Below, one piece after another: positions 43,414 to 51,081 of a DNA stretch of 64,000 nt. Below the pieces are notes generated by a model. It searched no databases. It was not told where the DNA came from and worked only from the letters and a program-made list of their open reading frames with translations. The translations under genes were made by a program, and so were the position numbers. The stretch covers positions 3,681,941 through 3,745,940 of the forward strand of contig WTGQ01000002.1 in the NCBI GenBank assembly GCA_011525365.1, read 5' to 3'. Source of the stretch: Acidobacteriota bacterium (lineage in GTDB: Bacteria; Acidobacteriota; Thermoanaerobaculia; Multivoradales; Multivoraceae). The first letter of the stretch is position 1. Each line of letters opens with the position of its first letter.

Positions 43414-44346
43414 CTATGGACCGCTGGCCTTCAGGAAGCTGAAGTAGTCGCTGTCGGTCGACACGACGAGCCAGGTGTTCGGGTCGATCGTCTTCTCGAA
43501 CGCCTCCATCGTGCGCAGGAACTCGTAGAAGCTCCGCGACTGGACCGACTGGTTGTAGGCCGAAGCGTAGATCTCGGTGGCCTCCGCGTCGGCCCGGCCC
43601 CGGATTTCGGTCGCCTGGCGGTAGGCCTCGGACTCGATCCGCTTCAGGTCGCGGTCCATGTTGCCGAGAATCTCCGACGCCTGGCCCTGGCCCTGCGAGC
43701 GAAAGCGGTCGGCAATCCGCTGCCGTTCCGAGATCATCCGGTTGAAGACATCCGGCTCGACCTGCTGGCCGTAGTTGATCCGCCGGAACTGCACGTCCAG
43801 CACCTCGATGCCCAGATCCGCGGTCCGATCCTGGGCCGCGACCAAAATGTCCTGGCGGATCGCGTCCCGTCCGGTGACGATCTCCTCGAGGCCGCCGCCG
43901 GCGTCCGGGTAGGACTCGTCCGCAGCCGCCTCGCGGTTCGAACTGCGGATCACCTCGATCAGATCGTGGTTGGCGATCGCGTTGCGGGTCTCGCCGTCCA
44001 GGATGTCGTCGAGCCGCGACTGGGCGCCCAACTCGTCGCGCAGCCTCTGGAAGAACAGCAGGGGATCCGAGATCCGCCACCGCGCATACGTATCGACGAA
44101 GATGAACACCTTGTCGCGCGTCGGCAGTTCCTCCGCGGAGCCCTGCCATTCCAGGAAGCGGCGGTCGAAGTAATGGGCCTTCTGGATGAAGGGCAGCTTG
44201 AACTTCAGTCCGGGAGTATCGATCGCGTCGCCGACCGGAGCACCGAACTGCGTGATGATCGCCTGGCGATCCTCGGGAACGATGAACAGCGCGTTGGCGG
44301 CGACGAGCAGTACCACCAGGACCAGGAGGATGGTGAGGACCCTCAC
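43414..44346 (-). CDS. hflC: FtsH protease modulator HflC
   Basis: This SPFH/Band-7 protein forms with HflK a periplasmic cage around the FtsH protease. It has an N-terminal anchor (LTILLVLVVLLVAANALFIV), the Band-7 core (FGAPVGDAIDTPGLKFKLPFIQKA) and a long coiled helix (RIADRFRSQGQGQASEILGNMDRDLKRIESEAYRQ). It is 310 aa. It overlaps hflK by 4 bp (ATGA). Confidence 0.95.
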   Translation of the reverse strand: MRVLTILLVLVVLLVAANALFIVPEDRQAIITQFGAPVGDAIDTPGLKFKLPFIQKAHYFDRRFLEWQGSAEELPTRDKVFIFVDTYARWRISDPLLFFQRLRDELGAQSRLDDILDGETRNAIANHDLIEVIRSSNREAAADESYPDAGGGLEEIVTGRDAIRQDILVAAQDRTADLGIEVLDVQFRRINYGQQVEPDVFNRMISERQRIADRFRSQGQGQASEILGNMDRDLKRIESEAYRQATEIRGRADAEATEIYASAYNQSVQSRSFYEFLRTMEAFEKTIDPNTWLVVSTDSDYFSFLKASGP

Positions 44347-45380
44347 GGCGTTCCCTCCCCGGCCTGCTGGGCCGCAATCTGCCGCGTCGTCCTCGCCGCG
44401 CTGACTCCCTCGAAGCTCATGATCGGCGTCAGGCCGTCGACGTCCTCGTCGACGACGATCTTCCGGCCCACCTGCGGCAGCACCCGCTCCATCGTCTCGA
44501 TGAACAGTCGCTTGCGCGTCACTTCCGGCGCCTGCCGGAACTCCTCGTAGAGGGCGTTGAAACGGGTCGCGTCGCCCTGGGCCCGGTTGACCCGGTCGAG
44601 CGCGTAGCCCTCCGCCTGCTGGATCGTCTGCCGCGCCTGGCCCTCGGCTCGCGGAATGACCCGGTTGTACTCAGCCTCGGCTTCGTTGACCAGCCGCTCG
44701 AGCTCCTGCTCGGCCTGGTTGACGGCGTTGAAGGACGGCTTGACCGGTTCCGGCGGGTTGTTGCTCTGGAGCACCACCTGGTCGATGGCGATCCCGGTCT
44801 CGTACTGGTTGCACAACTCCTGCAACGCGACTTTCACCGAGCCCTCGATCTCGGCCCGGCCGACGGTCAGCACTTCGTTCACGGTGCGGTCCCCGACCAC
44901 CTTGCGCATCACCGCCTCGCTCATGTCGCGGAAGGTCGCGTCCAGGTTGCGAACCCGGAAGAGGTACTGGTACGGGTCGACGACCCGGTACTGGACCACC
45001 CACTCGACGACCGCGGCGTTCAGGTCGCCGGTCAGCATGTTCGCCTCGTCCGGGTTGGACACGAAGGCGCTTCGCACCCCCACGCTCTCGCTGCTGAAGC
45101 CGAACTCCTCCTTCAACTGGCGCCTCACGGGCACCTTGGTCAACTGGTCGATCAGCGGGATCTTGAAGTTCAGGCCCGGCTCGGCCGTGCCGTTGTACTT
45201 GCCGAGACGGAGGATGACGCCCACCTCCTCGGGCTGCACCGTGTACACGCTGGACAGGGCCAGGAGGCCGGCCACCACCACCACGGCGATGATCTTCAGG
45301 CCGCCCAGGCGCTCGCGCAGCGCCTTGGTTACGTTGCCGAGATCGAGGGGGCTGTCGGCGCCGGGAAAGTTGTCAGGCAT
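44343..45380 (-). CDS. hflK: FtsH protease modulator HflK
   Basis: This is the larger partner of HflC. From ATG 45380 it is 345 aa: an anchor (LKIIAVVVVAGLLALSSVYT), Band-7 domain (GVILRLGKYNGTAEPGLNFKIPLID) and the helical AEAEYNRVIPRAEGQARQTIQQAEGYAL region. The track start adds 53 upstream codons that overlap the divergent helicase gene. The pair lies 64 bp from that gene. Confidence 0.95.
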   Translation of the reverse strand: MPDNFPGADSPLDLGNVTKALRERLGGLKIIAVVVVAGLLALSSVYTVQPEEVGVILRLGKYNGTAEPGLNFKIPLIDQLTKVPVRRQLKEEFGFSSESVGVRSAFVSNPDEANMLTGDLNAAVVEWVVQYRVVDPYQYLFRVRNLDATFRDMSEAVMRKVVGDRTVNEVLTVGRAEIEGSVKVALQELCNQYETGIAIDQVVLQSNNPPEPVKPSFNAVNQAEQELERLVNEAEAEYNRVIPRAEGQARQTIQQAEGYALDRVNRAQGDATRFNALYEEFRQAPEVTRKRLFIETMERVLPQVGRKIVVDEDVDGLTPIMSFEGVSAARTTRQIAAQQAGEGTP

Positions 45381-45444: not shown

Positions 45445-47928
45445 ATGCCGCCGCGTTTCGACGACGACGCGAGGACGCTCCGGCTGTCCGTGGCGGACCT
45501 GCTCGAACACAGCGCCGCCAGACACCTCGGCTTCGCCAACCGGGGCGGTTTCGAGCGGCTCTGGGTGGGCCAGGCGATCCACAGCCGCTACCAGGAAGGG
45601 GCGATGGAGCGCGAGCCGAGCTACCGGCGCGAGGTCGAGCTGTCGTTCGAGTTCGAGCACCGGGGCTGGCGGGTCACCCTGACCGGCCGGGCCGACGGGA
45701 TCTACCGCGACGCCGGCGGCCGTCTGGCGATCGAGGAGATCAAGTCCGTGCGGCCGAACGCCGACCCCTCGCCGGCGCTGCTCTCGACCTACCGCCGGCA
45801 GGCAGCGACCTACGCCTGGATCGTCCACCGCTCGGGCGTCGCCGCCGCGCTGCCGGTGCGCGCCGAACTCGTGCTGATCGAGATCGGCACCGCCGAAATC
45901 GATCGCCTCGACGTGGAACTCGACTTCGAGGAGCTCGACTCCGACATCCGGCTGCGACTCAACCGGCTCGTTCGCGAGTACGAGTCGGCGAGAGCGGAGC
46001 GCCAGCGCCGCGAGCTGGCCGCCGAACGGCTCGAGTTCCCCTTCCACCAGCCCCGGCCCGGCCAGCAGGAGATCATCGACCGCGCGGGACTCGCGGTCGA
46101 GCAGCGCGAGCACCTGCTGGTCCAGGCGCCGACCGGGCTGGGCAAGACCGCCGCCGTCCTCTTCCCGGTGCTGCGCGAGGCGCTGGCGCACGACCTGCGG
46201 GTGTTCGTGCTGACCGCGAAGAACACCCAGCAGGCGATGGCCAACCAGGTCATCGACCTGCTGAACCGGGAGCGGGCCTTCCACGCCCTGCACCTGCGTG
46301 CCAAGGCGCGGATGTGCGCGAACGACGAGATCATCTGTCACGAGGACTACTGCCAGTACGCCCGCGACTACTACGTCAAGCTGCAGCGGAGCCAGGTCAT
46401 CCCCCGCTTGCTCGACGGGCACAGCCTGCTGAAGCCGGACACGATCTTCGATGTCTCGAAGGGGGTTCGGGCGTGCCCCTTCGAGATCAGCCTGGAACTC
46501 GGCCGGCGGGTGCAGGTCGTGGTCGGCGACTACAACTACGCGCTCGATCCCTTCGTCAAGCTGACGGAGTTCCAGGGCGACGCCGACCTCTCCGGAACCG
46601 TCCTCGTCGTCGACGAGATCCACAACCTGATCGACCGCGGCCGCGGCTACTACAGCCCCGAACTCCCGGCGGCAAGCTGCCGGGCGGCCCGGGCGGGTCT
46701 GCGCCGGGCCGCCCGCGGCACGGAGGGCGGGCCGACGGCGCGCCTGCAGGAACTCTGCACCGCCCTGGAGGAGCTGATCCAGGGCGAGGTCGACCTGGCA
46801 GTAGACGGGCCCCACCGCAACGCGGTGGCCGAGGGCGCCGCGCCCGAGGAGCAGCTCTGGCGCCTGCGGGCCGCCTTCGACCGGGGCTTCGTGGACTACC
46901 TCGAGTTTCGCCGCGACACCCGTTCCTTCGCCGCCAACGACGCCTTCGTCGAGCTCTACTTCGAGCTGCTGCGGTTTCTGAACACCCTGCAGCTCGCCTC
47001 CCAGCCGAAGCACGCGGAGTCCTTCAGCTTCCTGTTCCGACGGATCGACCGCGAACCCAGCCTGGCCATCCTGTGCAAGGACGCGAGCTCCTTCCTGGGG
47101 GCCACGATCAACCGCTGCCGTTCGACGATCGGCCTGTCCGCGACCCTGCAGCCGTTCGAGTTCTACCGCGACCTGCTCGGCCTCGACCCGGCCCGCACCT
47201 CGACCCTCGAGGTACCGAGCGCCTTTCCGGCCGGGAACCGCCGGGTCGTCGTCGACACCTCGGTCACCACCAGGTACCGCGTCCGCGACGAGAACTACGG
47301 CCCGATCGCCGAGCGGCTGGCCGAGTTCGCCCGCTCCGTTCCCGGCAACTCGATGGCGATCTTCCCCAGCTACCGGTTCCTCGCGGAGGTCCAGGAGCGG
47401 CTCCCCGACTGCGGCCGCACCGTCCTGGTCCAGCAGCAGACGACCAGCGAGGAGAAGCGGAAGGAAGTGCTCGACGCATTGACGAATCCGCTCCAGGGCG
47501 ACGTGCTGCTCCTGGCCGTGGCGGGCGGCGTGTTCTCCGAGGGCGTCGACTACCCGGGCGACGCCCTGCTCGCCGTGGCCGTGGTCGGCCCCTGCCTGCC
47601 CGCCGTGACCATGGAGCAGAAGCTGCTCCAGGCCTACTACGACGAGCGTTTCGAGCGCGGCTTCGAGTACGCCTTCGTGGTCCCCGGGATGACCCGCGTG
47701 GTCCAGGCCGCCGGCCGGCTGATCCGCTCCGCCGAAGACCGCGGCGTGATCGCGCTGTTCGACCGCCGCTTCCTGCAACGCCCCTACCGGCGGCACCTTC
47801 CCGCGGAATGGTGGCCGAAGTCGGCCGGCGACGAAGAAGCCGACATTGCCGGCCATCCGGCCACCACCGCCGCCGCCTTCTTCGGCGAGGCGGCGCCGCT
47901 CACGGCCGGCGGCGAGGACCCATCGTGA
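45445..47928 (+). CDS. RecB-like nuclease / XPD-DinG-like superfamily 2 helicase fusion
   Basis: This 827-aa protein joins two DNA-repair modules. The N-terminal ~130 residues carry PD-(D/E)XK nuclease motifs of the RecB/Cas4 kind: GRADG (Asp84), EEIK (Glu98-x-Lys100) and QAATY (Gln119/Tyr123). The helicase has Walker A APTGLGKT (Lys234), four cysteines (291, 298, 303, 344) placed as in the XPD/DinG Fe-S domain, a DEIH box (390-393) and QAAGRLIRS as motif VI. Such an enzyme would unwind and nick structured DNA. It is 64 bp from hflK and its stop overlaps the luxE-like GTG (GTGA), so the three genes form an operon. Confidence 0.88.
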   Translation: MPPRFDDDARTLRLSVADLLEHSAARHLGFANRGGFERLWVGQAIHSRYQEGAMEREPSYRREVELSFEFEHRGWRVTLTGRADGIYRDAGGRLAIEEIKSVRPNADPSPALLSTYRRQAATYAWIVHRSGVAAALPVRAELVLIEIGTAEIDRLDVELDFEELDSDIRLRLNRLVREYESARAERQRRELAAERLEFPFHQPRPGQQEIIDRAGLAVEQREHLLVQAPTGLGKTAAVLFPVLREALAHDLRVFVLTAKNTQQAMANQVIDLLNRERAFHALHLRAKARMCANDEIICHEDYCQYARDYYVKLQRSQVIPRLLDGHSLLKPDTIFDVSKGVRACPFEISLELGRRVQVVVGDYNYALDPFVKLTEFQGDADLSGTVLVVDEIHNLIDRGRGYYSPELPAASCRAARAGLRRAARGTEGGPTARLQELCTALEELIQGEVDLAVDGPHRNAVAEGAAPEEQLWRLRAAFDRGFVDYLEFRRDTRSFAANDAFVELYFELLRFLNTLQLASQPKHAESFSFLFRRIDREPSLAILCKDASSFLGATINRCRSTIGLSATLQPFEFYRDLLGLDPARTSTLEVPSAFPAGNRRVVVDTSVTTRYRVRDENYGPIAERLAEFARSVPGNSMAIFPSYRFLAEVQERLPDCGRTVLVQQQTTSEEKRKEVLDALTNPLQGDVLLLAVAGGVFSEGVDYPGDALLAVAVVGPCLPAVTMEQKLLQAYYDERFERGFEYAFVVPGMTRVVQAAGRLIRSAEDRGVIALFDRRFLQRPYRRHLPAEWWPKSAGDEEADIAGHPATTAAAFFGEAAPLTAGGEDPS

Positions 47929-48968
47929 CGACTCTCGTCCAGCGGATCGAGGCCTTCATTGTCACGGGCCATGGCGACTTCGACGAGCTTGCCGCGGCCG
48001 CCGCCCGCTCCGGGTATGAGCGGGTCGAGCCCTACCGCCGCCTGTGCGACCGGCGCGGCCTGGGCGCGGACGCGCTCGAGGACTGGCGCCTCGCACCCGC
48101 CGTGCCCACTTCCGCCTTCAAGTCGCTGAGGCTCGCCGCCGACGAACCCCGCGAGATCTTCAGGAGCAGCGGCACCACGCGAGGCGCGGAACGGCGGAGC
48201 GTCCACTACCACCCCTATCCCGACCTCTACCGAACCGTGATCGACGCCTCCTTCGCCGGAGCCTGCCTGCCCGCGGGCACGGGACGCCTCCCGATCCTCT
48301 CGCTCATCCCCGACCGTGCGATCGCCGCCGACTCGAGCCTCTCGTTCATGGCGGCTCACGTGTTCGAGAACCACGCCGCGCCCGGCAGCGCCTGGGCCGT
48401 TCAGGACGCCGGCATCGACCTGGACCTCGCCTGCCGCTGGCTCCGCGCCCGGACCGAAGGCGAGCCCGTCCTCGTCCTCGCGACCGCGCTGGCCCTCGTC
48501 CTGCTGCTCGACCGGCTCGAAGGTGAAACGGGAGGCCGCATCCGGCTGCCGCCGGGCAGCCGCGTCTTCGAAACCGGCGGCTTCAAGGGACGGAGCCTGG
48601 AGACGACCCCCGAGGCGGTCCGGCGACACGCCCGCACCCTGCTCGGCCTCGACGCGGAAGCCGTGGTGCGCGAGTACGGGATGACCGAACTGACCAGCCA
48701 GGCCTACTCCCGGCCCGGCGGCGAGCGGCTGCGCACGCCGCCGTGGATGCCGTTCCGCGTGCTGGATCCCGCAACGCTCGAAGAGGTCGAAGAAGGCGAG
48801 ACCGGGCTTCTCGCCTTCTTCGATCTCGCGAACGTCGGCTCGGTCTGCCACGTGCTCACCGAGGACCTCGGCGTCCGGGAGGACGGCACCTTCCGCCTGC
48901 TCGGCCGCGCCAGCGGCGCCGAACTGCGCGGCTGCTCCCTGACCGCCGAGGAACTGGGCGCCGCGTGA
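47925..48968 (+). CDS. LuxE-like acyl-protein synthetase
   Basis: This is a 347-aa ATP-dependent ligase of the LuxE family, which activates a fatty acid as acyl-AMP and passes it to the reductase subunit. From the GTG at 47925 the motifs are EIFRSSGTTRG (P-loop-like), RVFETGGFKGRS and EYGMTELTSQAYS, typical of the adenylate-forming superfamily. The track fused it to the upstream frame. It is coupled by GTGA overlaps to the helicase before and the LuxC-like gene after. No luxA, luxB or luxD is seen, so bioluminescence is unlikely. Confidence 0.87.
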   Translation: MTTLVQRIEAFIVTGHGDFDELAAAAARSGYERVEPYRRLCDRRGLGADALEDWRLAPAVPTSAFKSLRLAADEPREIFRSSGTTRGAERRSVHYHPYPDLYRTVIDASFAGACLPAGTGRLPILSLIPDRAIAADSSLSFMAAHVFENHAAPGSAWAVQDAGIDLDLACRWLRARTEGEPVLVLATALALVLLLDRLEGETGGRIRLPPGSRVFETGGFKGRSLETTPEAVRRHARTLLGLDAEAVVREYGMTELTSQAYSRPGGERLRTPPWMPFRVLDPATLEEVEEGETGLLAFFDLANVGSVCHVLTEDLGVREDGTFRLLGRASGAELRGCSLTAEELGAA

Positions 48969-50197
48969 GCACGCCCGAAGCCACGGCCCATCGTCTCGCC
49001 GCAACCGCGCCGTCGCTCCGCGCCATCCCGGACGAGCACGTCCTCGCCGCCTGGAACGACACCCTGGCAGCCTTCCTCGATGCCGACAGCCCGGAGCGCC
49101 GTGACCTCGACCCCGGCCTGCTTCAATCCACCGGGCTTTCACCGGCCGGCCTGAGCCACGGCCTGGGGAGCATCGGCGAAGGCATGCTCGGGGATGCCGC
49201 GGCCGCCGAACTTCAAAGGCCGCACCGCCAAGAGGATGACGGCTTCAGCCTGGTCGTTCTTCCGGCCGAGCCCCCCGGACTGATCCTCCAGTCCTTCCTG
49301 CCCGCACTCGCGGCACGCGCTCCCGTTCTCTTCAAGTCCTCCCGCGCCGAGCCCCGTTTCGCGCCGGCCTTCCTCGCCGCCCTCGGGCGGCGACTACCCG
49401 AGCTGCACGACGCCTACGCCGCCGTCACCTGGACCGGCGGCGACGAAGCGGTCGAGACGCCACTCCACGCCGCCGCCCGACTCGTCGTTGCCTACGGCGG
49501 GGAGGCAACGATCGATGCCCTCCAGTCCGCCGCCGTAGGCCGGCTCGTCGCCTTCGGACCGAGGCTCAGCCTCGGTTGGGTCGGCCCAGGTGCCAACCCG
49601 GAGCAGGCCGCCCGCGGCATGGCGCTCGACATCGCGACCTTCGACCAGCGCGGTTGCCTCTCCGTCCACACCGTCTTCGCCGAGCCGGACACCGCCCCCA
49701 CCTTCGCCGCCGCCCTCGCAAGGGCCCTCACCGAACTCGCGCTCGATCTCCCGCCCGGCCGGAGCAATACCGCCGACCGTGCCGGCGCCCGCCTCGCCCG
49801 CGAGGAGGCCGAACTTCGAGGCCTCGACTGGCACGGTGACGCCCTCGACGCCGGCACCGTCATCGTCGACCCCGACCCGCGGATCAGCCCCTCACCCGGC
49901 CTCCGCACCGTCCGCATCCACCCGATCGCAGGCGTCCCGCCGCTAGCCGACTGGAACGACCGGCTTCAGGGCATAGCCGTGGCCGGCCACATGCCCGCGA
50001 CCATCCGCCGCGCCTTCGAGCAAGCCGGCGTCTCGCGCTTCGCCCCGGCCGGCCGACTCCAGGCCACCGACGCCGCCTGGCGCAACGGCGGCATCGACCT
50101 GGCCGCCGAGTTCGCCTACGGCTCCGGCGGAAAGCCCGACACCGTCTCGACCACGACGCCGTCGTCGACCCGGAACGAGCGCGGCAGCGTCCGGTAG
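48965..50197 (+). CDS. LuxC-like acyl-CoA/acyl-protein reductase
   Basis: This 410-aa aldehyde-forming reductase resembles LuxC. It has an NAD(P)-binding layout (FSLVVLPAEPPGLILQSFLPALAARAPVLFKSS) and the acylated catalytic Cys in FDQRGCLSVHTVF. With the LuxE-like partner it would reduce fatty acids to aldehydes, for lipid, wax or signal synthesis; the product here is unknown. The GTG start overlaps the luxE stop. Its last 82 bp overlap the convergent MauE-like gene. Confidence 0.85.
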   Translation: MSTPEATAHRLAATAPSLRAIPDEHVLAAWNDTLAAFLDADSPERRDLDPGLLQSTGLSPAGLSHGLGSIGEGMLGDAAAAELQRPHRQEDDGFSLVVLPAEPPGLILQSFLPALAARAPVLFKSSRAEPRFAPAFLAALGRRLPELHDAYAAVTWTGGDEAVETPLHAAARLVVAYGGEATIDALQSAAVGRLVAFGPRLSLGWVGPGANPEQAARGMALDIATFDQRGCLSVHTVFAEPDTAPTFAAALARALTELALDLPPGRSNTADRAGARLAREEAELRGLDWHGDALDAGTVIVDPDPRISPSPGLRTVRIHPIAGVPPLADWNDRLQGIAVAGHMPATIRRAFEQAGVSRFAPAGRLQATDAAWRNGGIDLAAEFAYGSGGKPDTVSTTTPSSTRNERGSVR

Positions 50198-51081
50198 AGA
50201 GGATTCAGGAACGTCGGCGGCGCCTCGCGGATCTCGAAGGCGGGCCCGTAGGACCAGAAGAACGTCCGGTTCTCGTCCGGCGTCGCGGAGCTCAGGACCC
50301 ACATCCGGCCGCCGGCGAAGACGTGCTGGTTCAGGGCGTCGACCGCCTTGCCGAGGTCTTCGTCCAGGTCGGCGATGACCAGCCAGTGCTCGCCTTCTTC
50401 CAGCTCGGGCACGATCGTGCTCAGGCAAAGCCGGCTGACGCCGTCGCCGCTGCAGATCTCGTCGATCACAAGATCGGGCTTCAGCCGCGTCGCCAGGTTG
50501 TCGAGCGGCAGGTCCGGCGCGGCGCGGGCGAAGGCGAGCAGCCCGACGGTCAGGGTGCCGACCACGGCGAGCCGGATCCAGGGGGCGCCGCCGGCCGCAC
50601 GCCGGCCGAGGAAGGCCAGCGCCAGCGCCGGCACCATGAGCGCCAGGTCCTGCCAGAATGCCTCCGCCGGTGTCCGCTCGACCAGATTGCCGAAGCAGCC
50701 GCAGCCGGCTTCGTCCTCGGTCGCGATGCCGCGCAGGTCGCGGTAGTAGGTGCGGCCGGTGAGAAACAGGAAGAAGGCGACGAGGAGCGCCGACGGCCCG
50801 AGCACCCACATCCGGCGAAGCCCCAGGATCAGCGCGCTGCCTAGACCCATCTCGAGCGCCAGCGCGATCGCGGTGACCACGACGGCCGGCAGCAGGAAGT
50901 CGAGCCCCTCGATCTCGATCTGCTTGACGAACGCCTGCGGGTCGAGCGCCTTGACGACTCCCCCGAACACCAGCACGGCACCCAGGAAAGCACCGCCGGC
51001 CCAGCCGACGACGGGAAGTACGGAGGCAAGCGCCCCGCCTGAACCCGCCGCGCGGGTCTTGCGGCGCAGCTCACTCGACAT
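50116..51081 (-). CDS. MauE/DoxX-like redox-associated membrane protein
   Basis: This 321-aa protein has five hydrophobic segments and the MauE-type motif GCGCFGN (residues ~130) after RTYYRDLRGIATED, where MauE-like proteins carry a CxCFG cysteine pair linked to disulfide handling. A ~130-residue soluble C-terminal domain with two Cys (CSGDGVSRLC) follows. Partners in the cluster are unclear. It overlaps the end of the convergent LuxC-like gene by 82 bp and starts near the divergent ABC-F gene. Confidence 0.75.
   Translation of the reverse strand: MSSELRRKTRAAGSGGALASVLPVVGWAGGAFLGAVLVFGGVVKALDPQAFVKQIEIEGLDFLLPAVVVTAIALALEMGLGSALILGLRRMWVLGPSALLVAFFLFLTGRTYYRDLRGIATEDEAGCGCFGNLVERTPAEAFWQDLALMVPALALAFLGRRAAGGAPWIRLAVVGTLTVGLLAFARAAPDLPLDNLATRLKPDLVIDEICSGDGVSRLCLSTIVPELEEGEHWLVIADLDEDLGKAVDALNQHVFAGGRMWVLSSATPDENRTFFWSYGPAFEIREAPPTFLNPLYRTLPRSFRVDDGVVVETVSGFPPEP

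What the first reader, a model, noticed from the sequence alone, without database searches (positions are those of the whole stretch)
45445..50197. Nuclease-helicase fusion coupled to LuxE- and LuxC-like genes
Three genes are joined by GTGA overlaps: a protein combining RecB-type PD-(D/E)XK nuclease motifs with an Fe-S XPD/DinG-like helicase, then an acyl-protein synthetase and an acyl reductase. DNA processing and fatty-acid reduction are not known to me as a functional pair, and the overlaps imply coordinated production. It could be a defence or stress module, or a chance operon.
Basis: partly seen in the sequence, partly recalled or inferred. Interest (0 to 1): 0.72.

Follow-up and report, generated by a model that had tools for sequence, protein, structure and literature searches.

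The report
Repair helicase beside unrelated fatty-acid genes
In one genus of mostly uncultured Acidobacteriota, a DNA-repair-type nuclease-helicase of a known kind has come to lie directly in front of a known pair of fatty-acid-reducing genes; related bacteria keep other genes between them, so this looks like an ordinary accident of gene order rather than a new DNA-and-lipid system.

Summary
The three genes and both 4-bp GTGA overlaps are real. Gene 1 (45445-47928) is a PD-(D/E)XK nuclease fused to an Fe-S XPD/DinG-type helicase. This is the published EndoDinG architecture; its nearest solved structure is Finegoldia magna DinG (PDB 9kqh). Genes 2 and 3 are LuxE-like and LuxC-like, with catalytic cysteines kept. 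The direct helicase-luxE junction is conserved in the window's genus (18 of 18 genomes read; 14 with a 4-bp overlap) but was seen nowhere else. In the rest of the order, luxE often lies 0.7-12 kb downstream of the helicase (25 of 39 genomes), and in all 22 of those loci that I read, opposite-strand genes stand between. Other orders of the class keep the helicase (69 of 77) and mostly lack LuxE (3 of 77). In 39 LuxE loci from other phyla, no such helicase lies in the flanks held. Several order members lost luxC and kept the helicase. Best reading: loss of an opposing cassette inside an old syntenic block joined two independent units into one young polycistron. A defence or DNA-lipid module is not supported.

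The parts
45445..47928 (+). EndoDinG-type protein, 827 aa: N-terminal PD-(D/E)XK nuclease (about 1-190) plus Fe-S XPD/DinG-type helicase (about 196-790)
47925..48968 (+). LuxE-like acyl-protein synthetase, 347 aa, acyl-accepting Cys337 (LRGCSL) kept; GTG start overlaps the helicase stop by 4 bp
48965..50197 (+). LuxC-like acyl reductase, 410 aa, catalytic Cys231 (QRGCLS) kept; GTG start overlaps the luxE stop by 4 bp; its 3' end overlaps the convergent gene by 82 bp
44343..45380 (-). hflK, divergent from the helicase (64 bp between start codons), followed by the hflC-like gene 43414-44346; also beside the helicase in several other families
50116..51081 (-). MauE/DoxX-like membrane protein, convergent with luxC; conserved flank of luxE-luxC in the order

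Best explanation
Two independent, known units now share one short polycistron. The first is an EndoDinG-type nuclease-helicase that most likely acts in chromosomal DNA repair or replication: the helicase unwinds DNA 5'-3' and the PD-(D/E)XK domain cuts it (inferred from the family). The second is a LuxE-LuxC pair that most likely activates a fatty acid, passes it to LuxE Cys337 and LuxC Cys231, and reduces it to an aldehyde (inferred from family chemistry and conserved cysteines). Both sit in an old syntenic block of this Thermoanaerobaculia order: hflKC, helicase, an opposing cassette, luxE-luxC, thioredoxin/mauE. In the window's genus the opposing cassette is absent (shown), most likely lost (inferred), after which the helicase stop came to overlap the luxE start. 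No shared function is needed to explain the arrangement.
For: Direct junction only in the window's genus: 18 of 18 read, 14 with a 4-bp overlap, 4 with 8-109 bp gaps. Elsewhere in the order, luxE lies within 12 kb downstream of the helicase in 25 of 39 genomes (24 same strand), with opposite-strand genes between in all 22 fetched, including G022 of the window's own family. hflKC and thioredoxin/mauE neighbours are also widely kept, so gene order here is generally slow to change. Helicase in 69 of 77 genomes of other orders, LuxE in 3 of 77. No helicase in the flanks of 39 LuxE loci of other phyla. Several f3 genomes lack LuxC and keep a shortened LuxE-like ORF beside an intact helicase.
Against: The linkage within the order is old, and same-strand in 24 of 25 near cases, and the overlap persists across a diverged genus; both would also fit weak selection for linkage. 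I did not measure the linkage of unrelated neighbour pairs on a tree. Loss of the cassette, rather than gain elsewhere, is inferred.
Confidence: 0.85

Rival explanations
1. The genus-specific operon is functionally selected: helicase and LuxE-LuxC are made together in a stress response that couples DNA repair with membrane-lipid or aldehyde metabolism.
For: Overlap kept in 14 of 18 genomes of the genus; all three genes under purifying selection; same-strand linkage widespread in the order.
Against: Retention within one genus is expected of any neighbours in this slowly rearranging block. Four genomes have gaps of 8-109 bp and the luxE-luxC junction itself varies. LuxE and LuxC evolve faster than the helicase. 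Each unit is found without the other elsewhere.
Confidence: 0.08
2. An anti-phage defence module in which the nuclease-helicase degrades invading DNA and LuxE-LuxC alters the membrane or makes a lipid signal.
For: PADLOC's type IV DinG model matches the helicase core (9.6e-101); a few relatives lie on phage or plasmid records.
Against: No cas genes; the ten neighbours tested show only generic ATPase cross-matches. Neighbours are hflKC, a nucleoside transporter, an ABC-F protein and methionine-synthase-like genes. The helicase is near-universal in the class, unlike patchy defence genes.
Confidence: 0.03
3. A luminescence or quorum-type lux remnant.
For: LuxE and LuxC families are matched.
Against: Scores are about a tenth of the luminescence equivalog cut-offs (54.9 of 550 and 56.8 of 750 bits); no luxA, luxB or luxD in the neighbourhood examined. 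LuxE and LuxC are each single in this genome. A genome-wide luciferase search was not run.
Confidence: 0.01

Closest known systems
EndoDinG subgroup of DinG-like proteins (PMC11981726, section 3.7; Finegoldia magna DinG, PDB 9kqh)
   Same: N-terminal PD-(D/E)XK domain with the H, E, D, E, K residues; CCCC Fe-S motif; XPD-like helicase core; full-length sequence and fold match
   Different: About 26% identical to 9kqh in the fold alignment; activity not tested; lies in front of luxE-luxC in this genus
LuxE-LuxC fatty acid reductase (PDB 7xc6)
   Same: Both families over Pfam cut-offs, adjacent, catalytic cysteines aligned
   Different: Far below luminescence equivalog cut-offs; no other lux genes in the neighbourhood; the order is luxE then luxC
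CRISPR type IV CasDinG / Csf4
   Same: Related helicase core
   Different: No cas genes nearby; Fe-S and PD-(D/E)XK parts present; Csf4 model score far below cut-off (14.3 of 400 bits)

Membership tests
EndoDinG | N-terminal PD-(D/E)XK domain with conserved H, E, D, E, K | tested here: met
   H46, E63, D84, E98, K100; E63, D84, E98 and K100 invariant and H46 nearly invariant in 14 order members, all invariant in A4; definition in PMC11981726
EndoDinG | Four-cysteine Fe-S motif in an XPD/DinG-type helicase | tested here: met
   C291, C298, C303, C344 invariant; Helicase_C_2, DEAD_2, HBB
EndoDinG | Endonuclease and helicase activity | not testable with these tools
   needs purified protein
LuxE-LuxC fatty acid reductase | Family match and catalytic cysteines | tested here: met
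   PF04443 and PF05893 over cut-off; Cys337 and Cys231 aligned with 7xc6
LuxE-LuxC fatty acid reductase | Reduces fatty acid to aldehyde with ATP and NADPH | not testable with these tools
   needs enzyme assay
Bacterial luminescence (lux) operon | LuxE and LuxC at equivalog level | tested here: not met
   54.9 of 550 and 56.8 of 750 bits
Bacterial luminescence (lux) operon | luxA/luxB in the genome | not tested
   only the neighbourhood was examined
Anti-phage defence system | Neighbouring defence genes | tested here: not met
   ten neighbours gave only generic ATPase cross-matches
Three-gene helicase-luxE-luxC module | Direct adjacency conserved beyond one genus | tested here: not met

The most novel reading that the evidence does not exclude
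The long-lasting same-strand linkage of the helicase and luxE in one order, ending in translational coupling in one genus, reflects a real link between DNA repair and fatty-aldehyde metabolism, for example repair tuned to aldehyde-induced DNA damage.
Probability: 0.05. Interest if true: 0.55.

Novelty: new member of a known kind. Interest (0 to 1): 0.13.

Why it matters
Mostly as a caution: 4-bp overlaps kept across a whole genus can arise when an opposing gene cassette between unrelated neighbours disappears, so operon structure inside one genus is weak evidence of shared function. It also shows EndoDinG to be near-universal in the class Thermoanaerobaculia; in the window's genome it is the only DinG/XPD-type helicase found.

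Tried and rejected
Defence island: rejected. Cross-phylum three-gene module: rejected by the LuxE-anchored scan of genome contigs and the class-level helicase and LuxE searches. Luminescence: rejected at equivalog level and by context. Mobile origin: helicase relatives in phage and plasmid records are all under 60% identical, the plasmid ones mostly non-mobilizable, with a few on Legionella plasmids; no support. A class-III aminotransferase accompanies LuxE-LuxC in about half of the other-phylum loci; I checked whether its relative is linked here and it is not. Paper searches on LuxC-LuxE complexes or non-luminescent roles gave nothing decisive.

Full report
What is there. Three plus-strand genes, 45445-47928, 47925-48968 and 48965-50197, overlap by GTGA twice. 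The window lies at 3.68-3.75 Mb of contig C1 of a 4.2 Mb assembly. It is from the Acidobacteriota class Thermoanaerobaculia, judged from the titles of its close relatives, which are MAGs named Holophagales, Thermoanaerobaculia and Candidatus Multivorans.

Gene 1. Pfam gives Helicase_C_2, DEAD_2 and HBB but no nuclease family. The nuclease part is shown by the match to PDB 9kqh (1.9e-87, residues 11-407 and 498-789). An AlphaFold model (mean pLDDT 79.9, pTM 0.74) has 9kqh, Finegoldia magna DinG, as its best fold match at 3.7e-50. The residues that define EndoDinG in PMC11981726 section 3.7 are present: H46, E63, D84, E98, K100 and cysteines 291, 298, 303 and 344. EndoDinG is thus a published architecture. 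This is the only Helicase_C_2 protein found in the genome.

Genes 2 and 3. The LuxE and LuxC families are matched over the Pfam cut-offs, but at about a tenth of the luminescence equivalog cut-offs. The catalytic cysteines align with PDB 7xc6 and are invariant in the order; that these are the acylated residues is established knowledge of the lux enzymes, from memory. Pairwise dN/dS within the genus is 0.09-0.24 for the helicase, 0.19-0.34 for LuxE and 0.29-0.38 for LuxC, so all are maintained. Reduction of fatty acyl groups to aldehyde is inferred from the families.

Is the association conserved? Within the genus, yes: 18 of 18 genomes read, 14 with a 4-bp ATGA/GTGA overlap and four with gaps of 8-109 bp. 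For L085 the overlap is taken from the ORF coordinates, because the automatic stop finder ran on in a wrong frame there. Elsewhere in the order I compared helicase and LuxE positions in 39 genomes. In 25, luxE lies within 12 kb downstream, 24 on the same strand. In 14 it is far away or on another contig, in part because some contigs are short; in families f5 and f6 no near case was seen. In all 22 near loci that I fetched, opposite-strand genes stand between: an ECF sigma factor, a small protein that may be its partner, a metal-resistance-like protein, a dCache-HAMP Ser/Thr kinase, a plastocyanin-like protein, or a ferredoxin with a small partner (for G146 the ferredoxin is seen in the six-frame translation). 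There the helicase and luxE cannot form an uninterrupted operon. In G022, of the window's own family, luxE-luxC is also inverted. In the window's genus the cassette is missing.

Wider tests. In other orders of the class 69 of 77 genomes have the helicase and 3 of 77 a LuxE hit, none near a helicase. Twenty class-level helicase loci show varied neighbours and no LuxE or LuxC. A LuxE-anchored scan of 84,980 species returned the 80 best loci. In the 39 labelled as other phyla, LuxC follows LuxE in 36, the other three ending at contig edges, and the helicase is in none of the flanks held. Several f3 genomes have a shortened LuxE-like ORF of about 300 aa and no LuxC hit beside an intact helicase. 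Each unit therefore lives without the other.

Interpretation. The simplest account is an old syntenic block that rearranges slowly, in which other neighbours (hflKC, thioredoxin/mauE) are also kept. Disappearance of the opposing cassette in one genus brought two independent units together, and the stop-start overlap followed. Shown: gene identities, junctions, distribution. Inferred: the direction of the change, co-transcription, and the enzymes' activities.

Against a defence reading. PADLOC matches only the helicase, through its DinG core; the ten neighbours tested show only generic ATPase cross-matches, and near-universal presence in the class is unlike a patchy defence gene.

Limits. The genomes are mostly MAGs, so some absences reflect incomplete assemblies. 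Gene calls in other loci came from a simple codon-usage script. Only the 80 best LuxE loci were returned. Linkage of this pair was not compared with other neighbour pairs on a tree.

Noticed in passing
L114, L119, L126, L127, L129, L130 and others among L109-L151: In 19 of 40 loci outside the known Acidobacteriota ones, a class-III aminotransferase accompanies LuxE-LuxC, usually just upstream. A LuxE-LuxC-aminotransferase set could turn fatty acids into long-chain amines. The nearest relative in the window's genome (40% identity) is unlinked, at G000:C2:134394-135647, in a dnaA/dnaN/dnaX neighbourhood.
   Followed up: partly
L064, L174, L175, L178, L179: In some f3 genomes LuxE is reduced to a divergent ORF of about 300 aa with no LuxC hit, while the neighbouring helicase and ferredoxin remain.
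   Followed up: partly
L129:9935-12322 (+): A Myxococcales MAG has LuxE and LuxC matches in one open frame, a possible fusion protein.
   Followed up: no
L038:10058-12688 and relatives in L032-L071: The cassette that the window's genus lacks includes a dCache-HAMP Ser/Thr kinase with a plastocyanin-like gene and an ECF sigma factor with a small partner; its absence from this genus may be of interest in itself.
   Followed up: no
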